A stretch of DNA of 64,000 bases from Sodiomyces alkalinus F11 (taxonomy: Eukaryota > Ascomycota > Sordariomycetes > Glomerellales > Plectosphaerellaceae), in contig NW_021167090.1 in assembly GCF_003711515.1 (NCBI RefSeq), positions 62,001-126,000 of the forward strand, read 5' to 3'. The translations under genes were made by a program, and so were the position numbers. The notes under the pieces were generated by a model, which did not search any database, was not told the origin of the DNA, and saw only the letters and a list, made by a program, of their open reading frames with translations. Positions 27,887 through 56,984 of this stretch are shown here, piece after piece. How positions within the stretch are numbered: position 1 is the stretch's first letter; the number at the start of each line of letters is the position of its first letter.

Positions 27887-28774
27887 CAACGACAAGGCTT
27901 CTTTCTTGTGGTTAGACGTCTCGATCTACAAGGGCCAGGGGGTGAGATGATTGAATATTGCTGTATTGTATTGTATCGTCGTCTATATGACGGAGTCGGC
28001 TCATCTCGTTAAAGAAGCTAGATAAGAGAAGAAGGAACAGGAGGAGGAGAGTAAGAAGAGGAAGAAGAAGAAGATGAAGAGAGAGCGAGGTTACAGAGAG
28101 AACAGATATAATTAGTAGGCATCATAGACACTGGGACCCGGGGATCAGGAACGATGAACGATGGCTGTGAGGCATGGAGGGATGGCCCGTCCCGCTTCCA
28201 TGAAAATGCTGATACTAATCTTTTCGGTATCATTGGCTGCGGTGGGATGTGGGAGGGTAAAGTGTAGCAAGGAGGGACGGTGAGGGATGGTGGTGCGAAC
28301 TGGTTGTAGGACGACAGGACAGGACAGGGGTTGACCCTCGGCGGTAAGGTTGAAGTACTTCGTCGCAGGTACCTTTTTCTTCGTCCCGCCCACCACAGCC
28401 CCCAAGGTGGCTCAGCCGGTGAATGTTTGGAGGCGTTGGGAGGCCGGTGCCAAGATAAGATAACCAAAGTTGGAGGGGCAGATACGGTACCCTACCTACC
28501 TTATGGATTATGACCCGCCGTATCTCAAAGTTTACTGGACGGAGACGCGACCTGTACGTTTTCTTGCAACAGACTGCACCCCTCGACGCAGCATCTCGAC
28601 CTCCTCCGTACAACACTCGAGTCTCCTAACCTCATCCCCCATGTCCCATTCTCATTGTTTAAAACATACAGCTGTCAATACGGTAATCACAACGGAAAAC
28701 AGACAGTCCCGTCCTCCGACACATCTTCTGTTCGGTCCGTTCTTTCGTCGCCTCCTCCCGCCCATCCGCCGACC
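27887..28774. other. Divergent intergenic, CorA-like and Yju2 genes
   Basis: This region probably holds both promoters and a missing first exon of the CorA-like gene. An ATG on the minus strand near 27996 opens a short frame (MSRLRHIDDD) but cannot be joined confidently. Purine-rich GAAGAA repeats lie at 28025-28080 and a CTACCTACCTT-type motif near 28492-28502. Confidence 0.35.
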
Positions 28775-30019
28775 ATGCAGGGCTTCAATATGGGCCGTTA
28801 CGTCCCCCCGGACCTGGAGGGGACGACGACAGGCAACAAACTCCATTCCAAACTACCACCGGGCCGCCGCGCCTCCAAGCCGGGCACGCAAACCGTCCGC
28901 TTCGAGATGCCCTTCGCCGTCTGGTGCGACCACTGCCCGAAACCCACCCTGATCGGCCAAGGCGTGCGCTTCAACGCCGAGAAGCGCCGCGCAGGGAACT
29001 ACTACACCACCCCCATCTGGTCCTTCCGCATCCGACACGCCGACTGCGGCGGCGACCTCGAGCTGCGCACCGATCCGCAGAACACAGCCTACATTGTCGC
29101 CTCGGGCGGTCGGAAACGCGACGACGGGACCTCGCGAGAACAACAGCAACAACAAGAAGGACCTCTCGTCATCCTCACCGATTCTGAGCGCGAGGCTCTA
29201 CGCAAGAGCGCCTTCGCGAGTCTGGAACGCACCATCGAGGACCGCGAGGCCCTGCGCGCCACCTCCGAACGCATAGACCAGCTCGCCGACGTGTCGTACC
29301 GCCAGTGGGATGACCCTTACGAGCGGAACCGTGCCTTGCGAAGGGCCTTTCGTGTCGGTCGCAAGCAGCGCGAGAAGCAAACACTGGCCGACGATGCCCT
29401 TCGCGACCGGATCGGAGCAAGCATAGAACTGCTCCCTGCCACTGAGGAGGACGCGAGGAGGGCTGCGCTGGTCGACTTTGGGGCGGTACCAGAAGACGAA
29501 GAGGAGGAGAAGGAGGATGAGAGGGAGGGGGCGGAGGGGGCGGAGGAGGAGGAAGAAGAGAAGGAACAAGAGAGAGTCGCGAAGAAAGAAGTCACCGTCA
29601 GGAACCGCCGGCCGCACAAGGCCCTGGCGAAACCTCTGTTCGCCACAACCGCCAACGGCTCGTCATCTCGAGGAATCAGCATGACTTCTACAATGCTGCC
29701 GCAAGGGACCCCCAAGGCCGAGGTGCTGGCTGCGCAACGGCGCCGGGGCTTCGTCTCCGAGGTAGTGAACAACACCCGTGCCGCTCACGACCCATTTCTA
29801 CTGGACAATAGACCCCCTGGCTCCGCATCGGGACGAGCCCTTGTTCGGATTCCAGGGGTCAAGCGGAAGCGAGCCATTGACGAGGGAGCCGACAACGAGC
29901 TGGTGATGAGGGCAAACAACAACATATCGAGTGGTGTGCCTGATAAGCCACCTGATCCAGCAACACAGACATCCGCGCCCAAAACTGCTTTGATTAGCTA
30001 TGGGTCCGACTCGGATTGA
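28775..30019 (+). CDS. Splicing factor Yju2/CCDC130 (Cwf16) family
   Basis: This is a single exon of 414 aa. The N-terminus MQGFNMGRYVPPDLEGTTTGN is the hallmark of the CCDC130 (YJU2B) branch. A zinc site is formed by C51, C54 (WCDHC), H88 and C91 (RHADC). The conserved block GQGVRFNAEKRRAGNYYTTPIW follows the first cysteine pair. Downstream the protein is charged, with a Glu-rich stretch encoded near 29490-29580 and a low-complexity C-terminus. Yju2 relatives join the spliceosome around catalytic activation and step one. The frame is open for 40 codons before this ATG, but family members start at MQGFN, so the upstream part is taken as leader. Confidence 0.9.
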   Translation: MQGFNMGRYVPPDLEGTTTGNKLHSKLPPGRRASKPGTQTVRFEMPFAVWCDHCPKPTLIGQGVRFNAEKRRAGNYYTTPIWSFRIRHADCGGDLELRTDPQNTAYIVASGGRKRDDGTSREQQQQQEGPLVILTDSEREALRKSAFASLERTIEDREALRATSERIDQLADVSYRQWDDPYERNRALRRAFRVGRKQREKQTLADDALRDRIGASIELLPATEEDARRAALVDFGAVPEDEEEEKEDEREGAEGAEEEEEEKEQERVAKKEVTVRNRRPHKALAKPLFATTANGSSSRGISMTSTMLPQGTPKAEVLAAQRRRGFVSEVVNNTRAAHDPFLLDNRPPGSASGRALVRIPGVKRKRAIDEGADNELVMRANNNISSGVPDKPPDPATQTSAPKTALISYGSDSD

Positions 30020-30744: not shown

Positions 30745-31933
30745 TTATACATCATCCAGCCGCCCGGCGGGTTGCTCGTCTTCCTCGTCCCCAAAGCTTC
30801 CCACAGACGACATGTCGTCGTCATCCTCACTTTCCGCGCCAGCCTCGTTCGCTGCATCTTTACTGGCGTATTTTTGGACGTATTCTGGGTCGACAAGTTA
30901 GAGAAGGCCGGGTCACTGATTTCTTTTTTCTTTTTCTTCTTCTTGTGTGTTTGTTTATCTCCCCTTCTCTCAACCCCGGCAGAAACGTACCCTTCACCTT
31001 GATTTCGTAGTTCTTCTTATCCTTCATCATCAAGGCAGCCGCCTCTCCGTTCAGCGGATCTGAGGGGTTCGGGTATCGAAGGAGCTGAGGAAGGAAGACC
31101 TCGAAAATGTTGATCATATCAAACATCGGGGACCAAGTTTGGTTGATCACGTCCAGGCAAACCGAGCCAGACCTGTAATTGCCAACCCGTAGTCAGTCAC
31201 TGCTCGACTCGAAGAAGGAAATTCCAAGCCGGCGACCTGGAGTCTGGAGATGCTTACAATTCGTCAATGTTCGGGTGGAAGATGCGGTTCACAAAACCAA
31301 TGCTAGGGGATTTGTAAGGGTATTGGTCCGGGAGCTCGACATGGACCTTCCAGGTGCCACCTTCGAATGGAGCTATTGGCATGTCAGTGACTGACTGCCT
31401 TTGCACAGCGTTCTTGGCTCAACAGCCTGAAGAGCACTAACTCTCCGCAGGTCCCTTAAACCGGACGAAGAACTCCTGCCTGTATTGGTTTTAGTCAGGT
31501 CGGTCGGTGGTCCATGATGCATCAGAGTGGAACGGTCGGTGGTCTTCGGTAGCTCACACTGTAATTCCATGGTTAGTGAACAGAAGTATCAAGAGTAGGT
31601 GCTGAAGAGACGACTTTGTGGCGGCTACGCCATGGCGTGCACTGGTCTGAGAGGAGGTACTTACTATTATCATTGACAAGTGTGACCTCGTAGTCACTCA
31701 TAAGCCTAGAGCACCGAGGGTGAGTACCTATAGAACAAAGCCTCGAGAAGAGAGCGTTGGAAAAGGAACGTACATCCTGCATCACGTTAGCTAAGTGATC
31801 TCAAGAACAATGACACTGTAAGAAGACCTACTTCATAACCTGTCGACAACATGTCATATTAGCACGTTAGCTGCAAAGAATAAACAGAGAAAGAACCTAC
31901 GTCTGTCTCGATTCTCCGTCGTGGGCTGCTCAT
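30745..31933 (-). CDS. ubc8: Ubiquitin-conjugating enzyme E2, Ubc8/UBE2H type, with micro-exons
   Basis: Nine exons are inferred: 31933-31901, 31839-31832 (8 nt), 31776-31774 (3 nt), 31705-31665, 31558 (1 nt), 31479-31442, 31372-31258, 31172-30991 and 30884-30745 (186 aa). Every intron is GT-AG, and those around the smallest exons have CTAAC- or CTGAC-like branch sites. The product begins [19 protein letters not shown]. The active-site cysteine falls at C85 in [13 protein letters not shown], the same number as in yeast Ubc8. The tail is acidic (ESEDDDD...EDEEQPAG-like). In yeast Ubc8 supports Gid/CTLH-dependent degradation of gluconeogenic enzymes such as FBPase. Dropping the 3-nt or 1-nt exon loses a conserved position or breaks the frame. 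The model is strongly supported by homology but needs cDNA. Confidence 0.88.
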
Positions 31934-36633: not shown

Positions 36634-38862
36634 ATGTTACGTGCTACCGATATCCAGTCCAGGACACCTCCTCTAGGTTTCACGTTCACTGTTTATGAGA
36701 CGTGGAAAAAGCTTCAGGGTCTCAAGGTCAGAGGCGCTTCACTCGACATTGACGGTTGCTCTCTCGATATCCCTTCTGTCGTCGCCGCGGCTTGGCATGG
36801 ACTCGCGCCTAACATCAAAGCCGATCCCCTTCTCAGACGCCGTCTCCAGGACAGCATTCGCGTCCTCAACCGTCATCTCGAGAATGGCTGGATCATCTAC
36901 GGCGTCAACACGGGCTTTGGCGGTAGTGCCGACTCCCGCACGGAACAGTTGAACAAGCTCCAAGTCGCCCTCCTCCAACATACCCAGAGTGCCATCATCA
37001 CCTCCGACGACAAGGCCGGTCGTACCGATCGAGATGGCCAGTCTCACGTCATCCCAGTTTCCTGGGTAAAAGCCGCCATCCTGATACGCGCGAACCAGAA
37101 CCTACGAGGTCACAGTGCTGTCCGATTGGAGGTCATCGACAAGCTGCTTCAGCTGTTGTACCACGACATCACGCCTCTGGTCCCCCTCCGCGGCACCATC
37201 TCCGCCTCGGGTGACCTCATGCCCCTTTCCTACATCGCTGGCACCTTGACCGGGAACCCCGACATCTTCGTCCGTCTCGGCAGCGACTCCGACTCCGACT
37301 CCCACGCCACCGGCCACCGCATCGTTTCGTCTCAGGTCGCCCTCGAGACCAAGGGCCTCACTCCCGTCGAGCTGGGCCCCAAGGAAGGCCTCGGTCTCAT
37401 CAACGGCACAGCCCCGTCCGCCGCCCTAGCCGCCCTCGTGCTCCACCAGGCACACCAGCTTGCCCTTCTGGCCCAGTCCCTGACCGCCTTCACCGCAGAG
37501 TGTCTCTCGGGCAACGTCGAGTGGTCTAACGACTTCATTCAAGCCATACGTCCGCACCCGGGCCAGCAAGAGGCCGCTCGGACCATCAGAGCCCTGCTAG
37601 GGGGCTCAACTTTCGTCGTCGGGCTCAACGGCGAGGACAAAAGGCGCACGGGCGACGGCCTCTGGCAAGACCGCTATTCGACCCGTACCGCGCCGCAATG
37701 GATCGGCCCCTACCTGGAAGACCTCCTCCAAGCCCGGCGCCAAGTCGAGCTGGAGCTGAACTCGACGTGCGACAACCCGGTCATCGAAGCGGATAAGAAT
37801 GAAGTCTACTCGGGCGGCAACTTCCAGGCCACCGTCATCACTTCCGCCATGGACAAGACCAAGTCGGCCCTCGTCATGATCGGCCGCATGCTCTTCGCCC
37901 AGTGCACCGAGCTCATCGACCCGGCCCTGAACAACGGCCTCGACGCTAACCTCGTCTTCGGCGACCCCCACGACTCGTACACCATGAAGGGCCTCGACGT
38001 GAACATGGCTGCCTACATGTCCGAGCTCGCCGCCCTCGCCCACCCCGTCTCCGCCCACGTCCTGCCCGCCGAGATGCGTAACCAGTCCATCAACTCGCTC
38101 GCCTTCCTCTCCGCCCGCCGCACTGCCGAGGCCCTCGACCTCCTTGCCCATATATGCGCCGCCCACCTGTACGTCTGCTGCCAGGCCGTCGACCTGCGCC
38201 ACTACCACCGTCGCTTCCTCGCCCACCATGTTCTTCACCTGGCCCTTGAACCCTCTTCCTCCCCCTCGTCGTCATTATCCTCCCTGGGCTTATCGCCAGA
38301 AACACGCGCCAGTCTCTGCCGCGACCTACGGGATCTGCTAGTCCGCAGATGGCACGAGGCGAACAGAATAGGGCACATCGAACGATGCAAGCACGTCGCC
38401 TCGGACCTCGCCTCATTCATTCTCACCACCACCGTCGAACAAAAGGAAGGTATCGACCCCGTCACCGTCGCCCAGGCCGTCATCTCCTTCCAGAAGACGC
38501 TGCATCGGGACATGCAAAGCTGGGTCACTGACCCGGTCAACGATCCTGATCCTCCTCCTCCTTCTTCTTCTTTTGCTACTGCTACTGCTACTGCTACTGC
38601 TACGACGACTCCCGGAATCAAAATACCCGAGGGCTTGGGCCGGGGTGCAAGTGAGTTATATCGTGTCGTTCGCGGCCTTCTCGGTGTTGGGTTCCACCGC
38701 GGTCTCAGGGGCAGCAGCACCATCCAGGACAGCGGCGTAGGAAAGACCATCGGCACCGACGTCAGTACCATCTACGAGGCGATTCGCGACGAGACAGTCA
38801 TGGATACACTGATGCCCCTATTCGCTGACTTTGGGGATGCATATCCAGATGCATGTACCTAA
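36634..38862 (+). CDS. Phenylalanine (possibly tyrosine) ammonia-lyase
   Basis: This is a single exon of 742 aa starting at ATG 36634. It is an aromatic amino-acid lyase. The MIO cofactor triad A191-S192-G193 lies in GTISASGDLMPLSYIAG. The catalytic tyrosine is Y89 in IIYGVNTGFGGSADSR. Conserved EGLGLINGTAPSAALAAL and NEVYSGGNFQA blocks are present. It should convert L-Phe to trans-cinnamate and ammonia, feeding phenylpropanoid-type or catabolic routes. The residue pair that tunes substrate reads His-Thr (H116, LLQHTQ). The His matches yeast-type enzymes that accept Tyr as well, so mixed PAL/TAL activity is possible. Near the C-terminus a Pro/Ser run and an Ala-Thr repeat encoded by (GCTACT)n at 38574-38603 form a low-complexity insert. 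A perfect hairpin follows the stop almost immediately. Confidence 0.92.
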   Translation: MLRATDIQSRTPPLGFTFTVYETWKKLQGLKVRGASLDIDGCSLDIPSVVAAAWHGLAPNIKADPLLRRRLQDSIRVLNRHLENGWIIYGVNTGFGGSADSRTEQLNKLQVALLQHTQSAIITSDDKAGRTDRDGQSHVIPVSWVKAAILIRANQNLRGHSAVRLEVIDKLLQLLYHDITPLVPLRGTISASGDLMPLSYIAGTLTGNPDIFVRLGSDSDSDSHATGHRIVSSQVALETKGLTPVELGPKEGLGLINGTAPSAALAALVLHQAHQLALLAQSLTAFTAECLSGNVEWSNDFIQAIRPHPGQQEAARTIRALLGGSTFVVGLNGEDKRRTGDGLWQDRYSTRTAPQWIGPYLEDLLQARRQVELELNSTCDNPVIEADKNEVYSGGNFQATVITSAMDKTKSALVMIGRMLFAQCTELIDPALNNGLDANLVFGDPHDSYTMKGLDVNMAAYMSELAALAHPVSAHVLPAEMRNQSINSLAFLSARRTAEALDLLAHICAAHLYVCCQAVDLRHYHRRFLAHHVLHLALEPSSSPSSSLSSLGLSPETRASLCRDLRDLLVRRWHEANRIGHIERCKHVASDLASFILTTTVEQKEGIDPVTVAQAVISFQKTLHRDMQSWVTDPVNDPDPPPPSSSFATATATATATTTPGIKIPEGLGRGASELYRVVRGLLGVGFHRGLRGSSTIQDSGVGKTIGTDVSTIYEAIRDETVMDTLMPLFADFGDAYPDACT
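38574..38603 (+). repeat. (GCTACT)5 coding microsatellite in PAL
   Basis: Five hexanucleotide units encode an Ala-Thr repeat within a variable C-terminal insert of the ammonia-lyase. The length probably varies among strains. Confidence 0.8.
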
Positions 38863-54398: not shown

Positions 54399-55126
54399 TT
54401 ATCCCGTCAGAATCTGAGTGAGCTCTTCTTGATAAGCCAGAAACTCGCGCCTAGCGTCGATCTCTGCAAGGCCATGCTTCCTCTCCAGCCGTTTCCACTC
54501 CCTGCGGACGTTCTTCCGCTCGAGCGGCGCGGTTCCCTCCTCCCCCGTCCGATGACGCGCGGATCGCAGGGGGCCTCCGGTAGCGTCGTCTACAAGTCTG
54601 AGACCTTGGTCGTCGCGCGGGGTCCATACGCCCTGCATGTTATCCGGGAGCGGGCGCTTGCTCCGGAGCACCTCCATGACCTGACCCGCGAGGCCGGGCT
54701 TGAGGGTCGTGGCAGCGAGGGCGGCGATGACGTCTTTGCGCTCATAGCCGACGGATTCGAAGCGCTCGATGGCGGCTATGAGCTCGGCGCAGTCGTTGGC
54801 TTCCGGGTCGCTTGTTGTGGGGGGACGGTCTTCGTCTTCTTCGCGGTACTGCTGCTGCTGCTGCCGCCGCTGTTTCTGCTGTTGTTGTTCGCGATCCTGC
54901 CCCCGCCCTCGAACCTGCGTTTGCGCCTCGGATACGCTGGCCGACCATTCTAGGATTTCGTGGCTCGAGGGGGTGGTTCTCGACGCGGAGACGCGGCTGG
55001 CATCTTCCCTGGGTTCAGGTAGTCTGGATCGGCTGTTCGTAGGCCTTCTACGCCTGTCACTTCCGCTGTTGTTGTTGCTGTTGTTGTTGCTGTTGTTGTT
55101 GCTGTTGTTGTTGTTGTTGTTGTTGC

Positions 55127-55157
<31 letters not shown>

Positions 55158-56984
55158 GCTGCTGCTATTCTTGTTGCACGACAACCGAAAAGGAACAGGG
55201 GAGGCGGGATTTTCCTCGTAGCGAAGCTGCTGAGACGGGGTGGTATCCCATTGCCCCGTCTCTTCCAACTCGGGGACATCCTCTGTTTGGTCTGTAGCGG
55301 AGACTAGAAACCGGGTCTCCCGTTCGACGTTTGTCTTGCCGGCGGTTTGCGCTTCGAGCTGTCGGGAACTCTCTAGTCGAACTCTTACTGACCGAACGCC
55401 TCGGGAAGGACTGCTGAGATCCTCTCCAAAGGCTGGTGGTCTCCTGATGCGCAACTTCTCATCCGGCGTGGATGGTATCACGTCACCCCGAGGCCGTCTT
55501 TGACGCTTGGGGGAATTACTCCCGGGTCCGTGGACATCATCAGTCCCGATAGCCCTCTTAGACCCGGCGCGCATACCTGATGGCGGCGGGCTACCGGCAT
55601 TCCTCCCTTCGGTGTGAGAAATAACTTCACGTACCCTGCTTTGAGGGGACGCTTGGTTCTCAGGACCCTCCAAGTCGATCTCCTCCCCCGTGGACTCGTC
55701 CCCGTCATCATCGTCTGACTCCTCAAATTCTTCCAAGGCGGCGACGAAATCGCGTAGAGTGATATCGTAGCACTTGCGCAGTTGGTCAGGGGCGTTGGGG
55801 AGCCTTTTCAAATCGAAGCCAAGTCTCTTCGCAACTGCGGACCAATTCACCTCACCGGAGAATTGTTTGACGGCTTGGTGGAGCTGGAACAAGTCCACAG
55901 GCTCACCAAAGATCTTTGGATTCAAGTCCGGTCTGTCGTTTCCTATCGTACTGAAATATTCGGCCAAGTCGTCGAGAAACCGCGTCTGTTCCTCCTCGAC
56001 CGGCCCGTCGTCTCGAGTAACGTGGGCCTCACGAGGGTCATCCGCTATCATTTGCGGCTGATCGCGAGGACGAGTGTAGCCCGTGTCGTTTTCGTTTCTA
56101 TCGTTCGTGTTTTGAGGCGGCGCAGTCCTAATACCACCGGCAGCTTGCGATGTTCCATGTTGAACACTGGAGTGTCGTACCCGCGGGGGCTGTTGTTTCC
56201 TGGGAGCGGGATCAGGGAGCCGATCTAAGCCCGCGAGCTGCAGCAATTGTTCGTCTGGCAGCCCCGAAAATTTCTTGACCCATCTGTTTCTCCACGAGTC
56301 CAAAGTGTGGCGGTCATTCTAGCAAGTGTTAGCCCATAAGAACGACGCAACACCCCCCTTTGTTTTGGCCACATTATATCCATCAACCCCATCAAACTTG
56401 TAAATGCTTACTATATTCTCCAGGGCCTTGTACATAAGATTTCCCGAGGGGGGGAATGTGTCTCTCCGGGCTAGAACCCAACTTATGAGACAAGCGTCGT
56501 CATCGCTTGTAAATTTTGTGCGTGTGGCCCGGTTGGGGGCGGACGATCCCACAGGGCGGGCTTTGCCGACAGGGAGGCCGATGCGATACTTGTCTGGGTC
56601 TTGCGGCGAACCCTTCTTCACCGAATCCTCTATGAACTTCCACGATATGGAACCCTTCGGAACATCGTTTCTGACATGGTCAGCGACGAGGTAGTGTGCA
56701 TCCGCTTCTCTGTTCACCACGCTGCCGCCGTTTTGCTGCATTAGGTTAGCATATCTCATCCTTGATATCACCGTGGTCTGTGCAGAAACCAGTGGCGCAG
56801 GAGACTGATGCCTATTCACCAAAGATCATGGGATAGAGGGCAGGGTACTCACCTGAATATGGGAAAGCAAAGTAGGTCTCATAGGAACGCGGTGGGCAAC
56901 CCAGAACTTGAGGTCTTTAAATAGATGACCGCCTCCACCAGCATCCTGAGATTCAACCCCATCGTACACGATGGGATACGCCAT
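54399..56984 (-). CDS. rap1: Telomere protein Rap1 (BRCT, Myb, ARID-like, C-terminal domain)
   Basis: Three exons are inferred, 56984-56853, 56735-56412 and 56318-54399 (791 aa), all phase 0. A BRCT domain covers about 1-90 (VYDGVESQ ... LLSHIQQNGGSVV ... HYLVADHV ... GSISWKFIEDS). A Myb domain covers about 115-172 (KFTSDDDACLISWVLARR ... NDRHTLDSWRNRWVKKF). An ARID-like segment follows at about 264-352 (IFGEPVDLFQLHQAVKQFSG, then NWSAVAKRLGF). The end matches the Rap1 C-terminal interaction domain. Between them is a Ser/Asn/Gln-rich linker with a long poly-Asn tract (about 536-570). Rap1 caps telomeres and modulates telomere length and silencing, binding DNA directly or through a TRF-type partner. 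Intron 1 offers a second in-frame acceptor that would add 14 residues in the BRCT. Confidence 0.88.
55065..55167. repeat. Trinucleotide repeat (GTT/AAC)n encoding poly-Asn in Rap1
   Basis: About 34 codons, nearly all AAC with scattered AGC on the coding (minus) strand, encode an Asn tract interrupted by Ser. Neighbouring CTG-rich codons (54845-54895) encode a Gln-rich stretch. Length variation among isolates is likely. Confidence 0.9.

What the first reader, a model, noticed from the sequence alone, without database searches (positions are those of the whole stretch)
31480..31664. Predicted single-nucleotide exon in ubc8
Between exons ending NDN|A and G|CAG GAG TTC, the conserved Ubc8 reading needs one extra base to form the ATG of NDNMQEF. 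Direct joining to the acceptor at 31481-31480 breaks the frame. A lone T at 31558 is flanked on its 5' side by CTAAC and ACAG, and on its 3' side by a GTGAGC donor. The downstream intron has a CTGAC/CTAAA branch and an ACAG acceptor. Using it gives A|T|G = Met, keeps E2 length, and places the catalytic cysteine at C85 as in yeast Ubc8. A 1-nt exon would be near the limit of the spliceosome.
Basis: partly seen in the sequence, partly recalled or inferred. Interest (0 to 1): 0.88.

Follow-up and report, generated by a model that had tools for sequence, protein, structure and literature searches.

The report
One-nucleotide exon in fungal ubc8
In a fungus very close to Sodiomyces alkalinus, the gene for a ubiquitin-conjugating enzyme appears to need an exon of a single letter to be read correctly, and traces in predicted proteins of other moulds suggest that this tiny exon is old, widespread and often mis-annotated.

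Summary
Observation confirmed; interpretation supported. The minus-strand gene is a Ubc8/UBE2H orthologue: nine exons of 33, 8, 3, 41, 1, 38, 115, 182 and 140 nt, 186 aa, Cys85. The T at 31558 lies between a 106-nt intron (GTAAGT, CTAAC, ACAG) and a 78-nt intron (GTGAGC, CTGAC, ACAG). Of 17 in-frame single-intron models none has a GTRNG donor; of 89 two-intron models one has all conventional signals: the 1-nt exon. The protein annotated for S. alkalinus F11 equals the model except at the 3-nt and 1-nt exons, reading SK for M at the latter. NDN-M-QEF is in 52 of 52 transcript-like relatives but 17 of 125 genome-annotated ones; three other junctions are intact in 122 of 125. Two Fusarium read-throughs in different frames force CACCAG|T|GTATGCCC if homologous; others (Aspergillus, Penicillium, Diplocarpon, Coniosporium) are compatible with it. 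So the exon is probably real and probably conserved in four Pezizomycotina classes. No RNA reads were examined. Known nuclear precedents: APC11 and VPS55 in plants, CYP621A in Fusarium.

The parts
31901..31933 (-). ubc8 exon 1 (33 nt, start codon, [11 protein letters not shown])
31832..31839 (-). exon 2 (8 nt)
   Evidence: VMK in relatives
31774..31776 (-). exon 3 (3 nt, GAT); gives VMKMLMSD, skipping it gives in-frame VMKLMSD
   Evidence: relatives
31665..31705 (-). exon 4 (41 nt), ends NDN|A
31559..31664 (-). intron 4 (106 nt; GTAAGT, CTAAC 13 nt before its end, ACAG; phase 1)
31558..31558 (-). exon 5: single nucleotide T, middle base of the ATG codon of M29
31480..31557 (-). intron 5 (78 nt; GTGAGC, CTGAC 14 nt before its end, ACAG; phase 2)
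31442..31479 (-). exon 6 (38 nt), begins G|CAG GAG TTC
31258..31372 (-). exon 7 (115 nt)
30991..31172 (-). exon 8 (182 nt), holds catalytic Cys85
30745..30884 (-). exon 9 (140 nt, stop codon; acidic tail)

Best explanation
The T at 31558 is a constitutive single-nucleotide exon of the fungal ubc8 gene. Two ordinary short introns lie one base apart. Each is recognised across the intron (donor, branch site and acceptor of the same intron), so no exon-spanning contacts are needed. Because the acceptor of intron 4 and the donor of intron 5 lie on both sides of one base, the two introns are probably removed one after the other. Either order leaves a conventional splice site (AATAT|GTGAGC if intron 4 goes first, ACAG|TGCAGG if intron 5 goes first). 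The product joins A|T|G to the Met of NDNMQEF. Shown: the sequence, the frame, the signals, the uniqueness of the model among those enumerated, and the protein-level agreement with relatives. Inferred: that the RNA is spliced so, that removal is sequential, and that the exon is ancestral to much of Pezizomycotina.
For:: 0 of 17 in-frame single-intron models has a GTRNG donor; of 89 in-frame two-intron models exactly 1 has all conventional signals, and it is this one; shuffle frequency 0.00125; the complete model is open, 186 aa, Cys85; all 8 introns are GT-AG with G at +5. NDN-M-QEF in 52 of 52 proteins whose only sources are jgi, lgn, ena or merc (46 of 52 with longest contig under 2 kb; taken as spliced transcripts) against 17 of 125 genome-annotated relatives; junctions 6-7, 7-8 and 8-9 are each intact in 122 of those 125. 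Fusarium flagelliforme HQCMP and F. pseudograminearum TSVCP, read in two frames, are jointly compatible with a single DNA string, CACCAG|T|GTATGCCC; P0043 (Fusarium sp. Ph1, NDN-MYALP) fits its first eight letters from the T; further proteins fit A|T GTAYG or GTTYG (NDN-MY or MF); implied intron 5 lengths are 52-75 nt in 12 proteins; the S. alkalinus F11 annotation avoids the 1-nt exon by another donor, giving SK.
Against: No RNA read or cDNA of this species could be examined. The public S. alkalinus F11 protein (P0002) has NDNSKQEF, which also keeps the frame with one extra residue. Twelve annotated relatives have V-QEF (one of them, P0029, also counts among the NDN-MY proteins), which would also fit a plain A|TG junction, so the exon may be absent in some lineages. 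Seventeen of 125 annotations do reach M; whether by a 1-nt exon or by a simpler gene structure is not known. Three proteins with NDN-M followed by H, S or P (P0032, P0078, P0170) do not fit a GT donor after the T. Evidence from other species is back-translated protein, not DNA; outside the Fusarium pair the back-translations are compatible with AG|T|GT but do not force it. Intron 3 of the same gene lacks a CTRAY site, so that signal is not universal here.
Confidence: 0.94

Rival explanations
1. The annotated model is right: one 181-nt intron from a second donor (GTACCT, 31660) to the acceptor at 31481-31480, giving NDN-SK-QEF, one residue longer.
For: It is the published protein of Sodiomyces alkalinus F11 (P0002) and is in frame. 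Nine of the 125 genome-annotated proteins, P0002 included, show the SK form.
Against: The donor GTACCT has C at +5, whereas all eight introns of the model, the six not under test included, have G there. GTAAGT lies 4 nt upstream. 0 of 52 transcript-like relatives has SK. The SK form looks like one of several workarounds (SK, R, K, MYV..., VQ) that different annotations show at the same spot.
Confidence: 0.03
2. Sequencing or assembly error: one base was lost, and there is really a single intron with the exon edge A|TG.
For: One base short of frame is the classic mark of an error.
Against: Two complete intron signal sets meet at the lone T. The same situation is inferred in Fusarium, Aspergillus, Penicillium and others, and Hyaloscypha finlandica P0119 shows a protein string expected from the frameshifted direct join, NDNSRSST (compare NDNSRSSS).
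Confidence: 0.01
3. The region is a nested twin intron (stwintron) rather than two introns around an exon, for example an acceptor-split form with an internal intron starting GTGTGAGC at 31559.
For: Stwintrons are known in Pezizomycotina (PMC9024468, PMC12403724; starts of abstracts seen in the listing), and this stretch is long for one intron.
Against: Read by eye from the sequence, not by a script: removing such an internal intron and then the external one joins A|CAG GAG and loses the frame. A first-base-split donor would need a G before GTAAGT, and the base there is A.
Confidence: 0.01

Closest known systems
CYP621A single-nucleotide exon of Fusarium (Nelson and Syed 2026, PMC12940212; parts 1 and 2 of 3 of the text read)
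   Same: Fungal nuclear gene, 1-nt exon in a conserved codon between two introns, missed by gene models; there supported by SRA reads.
   Different: Base G in a Gly codon of a P450 subfamily reported from Fusarium; here base T in a Met codon of a conserved E2 enzyme, with footprints in four classes.
APC11 1-nt exon of land plants (Guo and Liu 2015, PMC4674806, abstract and Results read; PMC8831610, passages read)
   Same: Constitutive 1-nt exon (A), needed for frame, mis-annotated, also in a ubiquitin-pathway gene; shown by base substitution in a reporter.
   Different: Plant gene, different protein; no common origin is suggested.
VPS55 1-nt exon of plants (PMC8831610, passages read)
   Same: 1-nt exon conserved over a large clade and missing from annotations.
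   Different: Plant; some lineages make both forms by intron retention.
Mitochondrial single-nucleotide exons: Ophiostoma rnl (PMC12308204, passages read), placozoan cox1 (PMC5436844, passages read)
   Same: One base of exon between two introns; the Ophiostoma case is also fungal.
   Different: Organellar introns: group II in Ophiostoma rnl; placozoan cox1 has trans-spliced group IB introns (the type flanking its 1-nt exon was not checked). Not nuclear spliceosomal introns.
Stwintrons of Hypoxylaceae and Xylariaceae (PMC9024468, PMC12403724; starts of abstracts in the search listing)
   Same: Consecutive removal of two closely coupled introns in Pezizomycotina.
   Different: There one intron splits a splice signal of the other and no exon lies between; here a base of coding sequence remains.

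Membership tests
Single-nucleotide exon | one base bounded by AG and GT, each intron with its own donor, branch-like site and acceptor | tested here: met
Single-nucleotide exon | inclusion needed for frame and for the conserved residue | tested here: met
   other models also keep the frame (17 single-intron ones, the annotated SK form among them), but none with a GTRNG donor
Single-nucleotide exon | conserved in relatives | tested here: met
   on protein footprints only; no relative's DNA was available, and 12 V-QEF proteins are ambiguous
Single-nucleotide exon | RNA reads or cDNA spanning both junctions | not testable with these tools
   no RNA data held; transcript-like proteins of relatives are indirect
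Single-nucleotide exon | a substituted base appears in the cDNA of a minigene | not testable with these tools
   bench test proposed
Ubc8 / UBE2H ubiquitin-conjugating enzyme | UBC domain, catalytic Cys, closest to Ubc8 and UBE2H among solved structures | tested here: met
   PF00179; 8pmq_E and 8pjn_2 best; C85; activity not tested
Stwintron | an internal intron interrupts a splice signal of an external intron | tested here: not met
   two forms checked by eye on the sequence: the acceptor-split reading breaks the frame, and a first-base donor split lacks the G

The most novel reading that the evidence does not exclude
The 1-nt exon of ubc8 goes back to the common ancestor of Sordariomycetes, Leotiomycetes, Dothideomycetes and Eurotiomycetes. 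It would be the oldest and most widespread single-nucleotide exon known in fungal nuclear genes, kept because losing or sliding either intron alone is hard inside a conserved codon, and it is wrongly annotated in most genomes of the group looked at here.
Probability: 0.65. Interest if true: 0.75.

Novelty: new member of a known kind. Interest (0 to 1): 0.62.

Why it matters
It adds a housekeeping gene to the short list of nuclear 1-nt exons that I found in print (APC11, VPS55, CYP621A) and, if the footprints hold, one spread over several fungal classes. That would give a natural, genetically tractable series for asking how the spliceosome handles an acceptor and a donor one base apart. It also points to a systematic error: 108 of the 125 genome-annotated ubc8 proteins examined do not read plain M at this residue.

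Tried and rejected
A genome-based splice-site weight matrix was tried three times on 264 kb of the own genome. The first run learned noise (188 'introns', 15% with a branch-like site), the second kept 13 introns, the third found 15 acceptors, 9 of them with a single possible donor, of which 6 have G at +5 (one of the 6 is ubc8's own intron 7). No matrix was used, and the percentiles printed (where the ubc8 introns score low) are not used because that matrix is noise.

A search for proteins that retain the introns gave only 5 hits, 2 of them new (P0121, P0122).

Considered and rejected: the annotated SK donor, sequencing error, and stwintron readings (see rivals). The DNA search found one copy of the stretch in the own genome, and the protein search, which scores only the best candidates, showed no intronless retrocopy of ubc8, so no spliced copy could be read from DNA.

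Unexplained in detail: 17 annotated proteins read NDN-KF. My reading, not tested on DNA, is that gene callers used an AAG acceptor where the Gln codon is CAA. P0032 (NDNMH), P0078 (NDNMS) and P0170 (NDNMP) do not fit a GT donor after the T.

Recount: the pattern gave 16 of 125; one search showed that it missed P0169 (DDNMQEF), hence 17. P0056 and P0093 (NDNSMQEF, one residue inserted) are counted as deviant.

Full report
What is there. The gene lies on the minus strand, 31933 to 30745. Its nine exons are 33, 8, 3, 41, 1, 38, 115, 182 and 140 nt; the joined frame is 561 nt, 186 aa plus stop, with the CLDV cysteine at position 85. It is a UBC-domain protein (PF00179), closest among solved structures to 8pmq chain E (Ubc8) and 8pjn (UBE2H). 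The own genome (43.4 Mb, 22 contigs) gave one match to the stretch. The protein search of the own genome showed other matches at 29-48% identity but no second ubc8 among the candidates scored.

Which organism. The annotated protein of Sodiomyces alkalinus F11 (P0002) is identical to the conceptual protein except at two places: GTHPRCSR instead of MKM, and SK instead of M (checked letter for letter). These are the two ultra-short exons. The window is therefore S. alkalinus or a very near relative (inferred; Plectosphaerellaceae, Glomerellales). The contig lengths differ slightly (1,205,156 listed for P0002; 1,199,605 for C12), so I do not claim the same assembly.

The 1-nt exon against its alternatives. 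Between exon 4 and exon 6, with exons 1-3 and 7 as modelled and the acceptor at most 8 nt into exon 6, I enumerated the GT/GC-AG single-intron models of 40 nt or more that keep the frame and have no stop: 17, none with a GTRNG donor. Of 89 two-intron GT-AG models on the same terms, one has GTRNG donors, YAG acceptors and CTRAY sites in both introns: 31664-31559, T at 31558, 31557-31480. AG-N-GT occurs once in the 185 nt. Shuffles give a comparable T exon in 0.125% of 20,000, and bare AG-T-GT in 9.1%.

Relatives at protein level. I took the 181 proteins listed by three searches (the lists show the best 120 of 5589 hits, 5 of 5, and the best 120 of 6047). Two plant-labelled records (P0001, P0038) and two found by the targeted search (P0121, P0122) were set aside. 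Of the rest, 52 come only from jgi, lgn, ena or merc sources; the longest contig listed is under 2 kb for 46 of them, 2.5-7.3 kb for five, and not given for one. I take them as largely spliced transcripts, which is an inference; the labels were copied by hand. The other 125 carry an annotated-genome source. The M of NDN-M-QEF (variants D/N, N/S/D and Q/S allowed) is present in 52 of 52 and in 17 of 125 (16 by the pattern, plus P0169). For comparison, in the 125 the junctions of exons 6-7, 7-8 and 8-9 are intact in 122, 122 and 122. The same patterns match 51, 44 and 51 of the 52, so the 7-8 pattern in particular is strict and misses some real variants. The N-terminal junctions with the 8- and 3-nt exons are intact in 42 of 125 and 46 of 52; the six misses among the 52 are truncated or variant starts that still read MKMLMSD. 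So the genome-annotated set departs mainly where the ultra-short exons are.

Footprints of the same architecture. Some annotations translate straight through the region. In Fusarium coffeatum the read-through contains HQCMS and in F. flagelliforme HQCMP; in F. pseudograminearum and a metagenomic contig (P0122) it contains TSVCP in another frame. Of 32 DNA strings for HQCMP exactly one, CACCAGTGTATGCCC, also reads T-S-V-C-P one base later, so the DNA is CACCAG|T|GTATGCCC if the two stretches are homologous. P0043 (Fusarium sp. Ph1, NDN-MYALP) fits its first eight letters from the T. The implied introns are 47-49 and 52-56 nt in these Fusarium-type records and 56 and 67 nt in Aspergillus niger. 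Eleven proteins by the pattern, plus P0118 Diplocarpon and P0129 Paecilomyces (strings checked), fit a join of NDN-A to T GTAYG or GTTYG and read on (NDN-MY or MF). In all 13 the third residue (V, A, G or D) has a codon beginning with G, that is G at donor position +5 (strings). Three other proteins with NDN-M do not fit (P0032, P0078, P0170). Three more proteins join an upstream exon to Cys-Met or Cys-Thr, which fits |TGT AYG (P0084, P0149, P0154). Where intron 5 is retained whole, its length is 52-75 nt in the 12 proteins, and 9 of 12 carry an in-frame Leu-Thr near the end, compatible with CTNAC. Forty proteins (39 of the 125 plus P0122) have R-QEF, expected if exon 6 begins AG|G CAG. Hyaloscypha finlandica P0119 shows a string expected from the frameshifted direct join (NDNSRSST). 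These records are related to each other and some belong to one species, so the counts are not independent. Twelve proteins have V-QEF (P0029 among them is also an NDN-MY protein); this fits either intron 4 retained with intron 5 spliced or a plain A|TG edge, so absence in some lineages is possible. The 17 NDN-KF proteins are not explained for certain.

Classes covered by footprints: Leotiomycetes (Diplocarpon), Dothideomycetes (Coniosporium, one protein), and, with class membership recalled, Sordariomycetes (Fusarium, Beauveria) and Eurotiomycetes (Aspergillus, Penicillium, Paecilomyces).

How it most likely works. Fungal introns are short and are generally held to be recognised across the intron (general knowledge, recalled), so exon length matters less than in animals. 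With one base between the two sites, both cannot easily be occupied at once, so removal is probably sequential; either order leaves conventional sites. This is inferred.

Print. Nuclear 1-nt exons are reported for Arabidopsis APC11 (PMC4674806, abstract and Results read), for APC11 and VPS55 across plants (PMC8831610, passages read) and for Fusarium CYP621A (PMC12940212, parts 1 and 2 of 3 read), which calls itself the first for a fungal gene. Single-nucleotide exons between organellar introns are reported in Ophiostoma mitochondria (PMC12308204, passages) and placozoan mitochondria (PMC5436844, passages). PMC11121469 (passages, including the abstract's opening) says functional microexons had not been described before in filamentous fungi. 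I found no report of a 1-nt exon in ubc8 in the listings; the library holds open-licence PMC papers only, and I did not open most of the papers listed.

Noticed in passing
31776-31774 (-): A 3-nt exon (GAT) in the same gene; skipping it keeps the frame (VMKLMSD for VMKMLMSD). Many annotated relatives have the skipped form, so both forms could exist.
   Followed up: partly
28655-30019 (+): The convergent neighbour ORF has a Saf4/Yju2 domain (PF04502), a family of splicing factors (recalled); a coincidence as far as I can tell.
   Followed up: no
31544-31501 (-): Intron 5 contains two copies of GACCACCGACCG (31544-31533 and 31512-31501), hinting at a small internal duplication.
   Followed up: no
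36634-38862 (+): ORF with an aromatic amino acid lyase domain (PF00221).
   Followed up: no
54399-56303 (-): ORF with ARID and Rap1_C domains, Rap1-like.
   Followed up: no
P0001 and P0038: Two records labelled Quercus suber and Pyrus communis score high (302 and 262 aa, P0001 with a repeated E2 stretch); they were left out of the counts.
   Followed up: no
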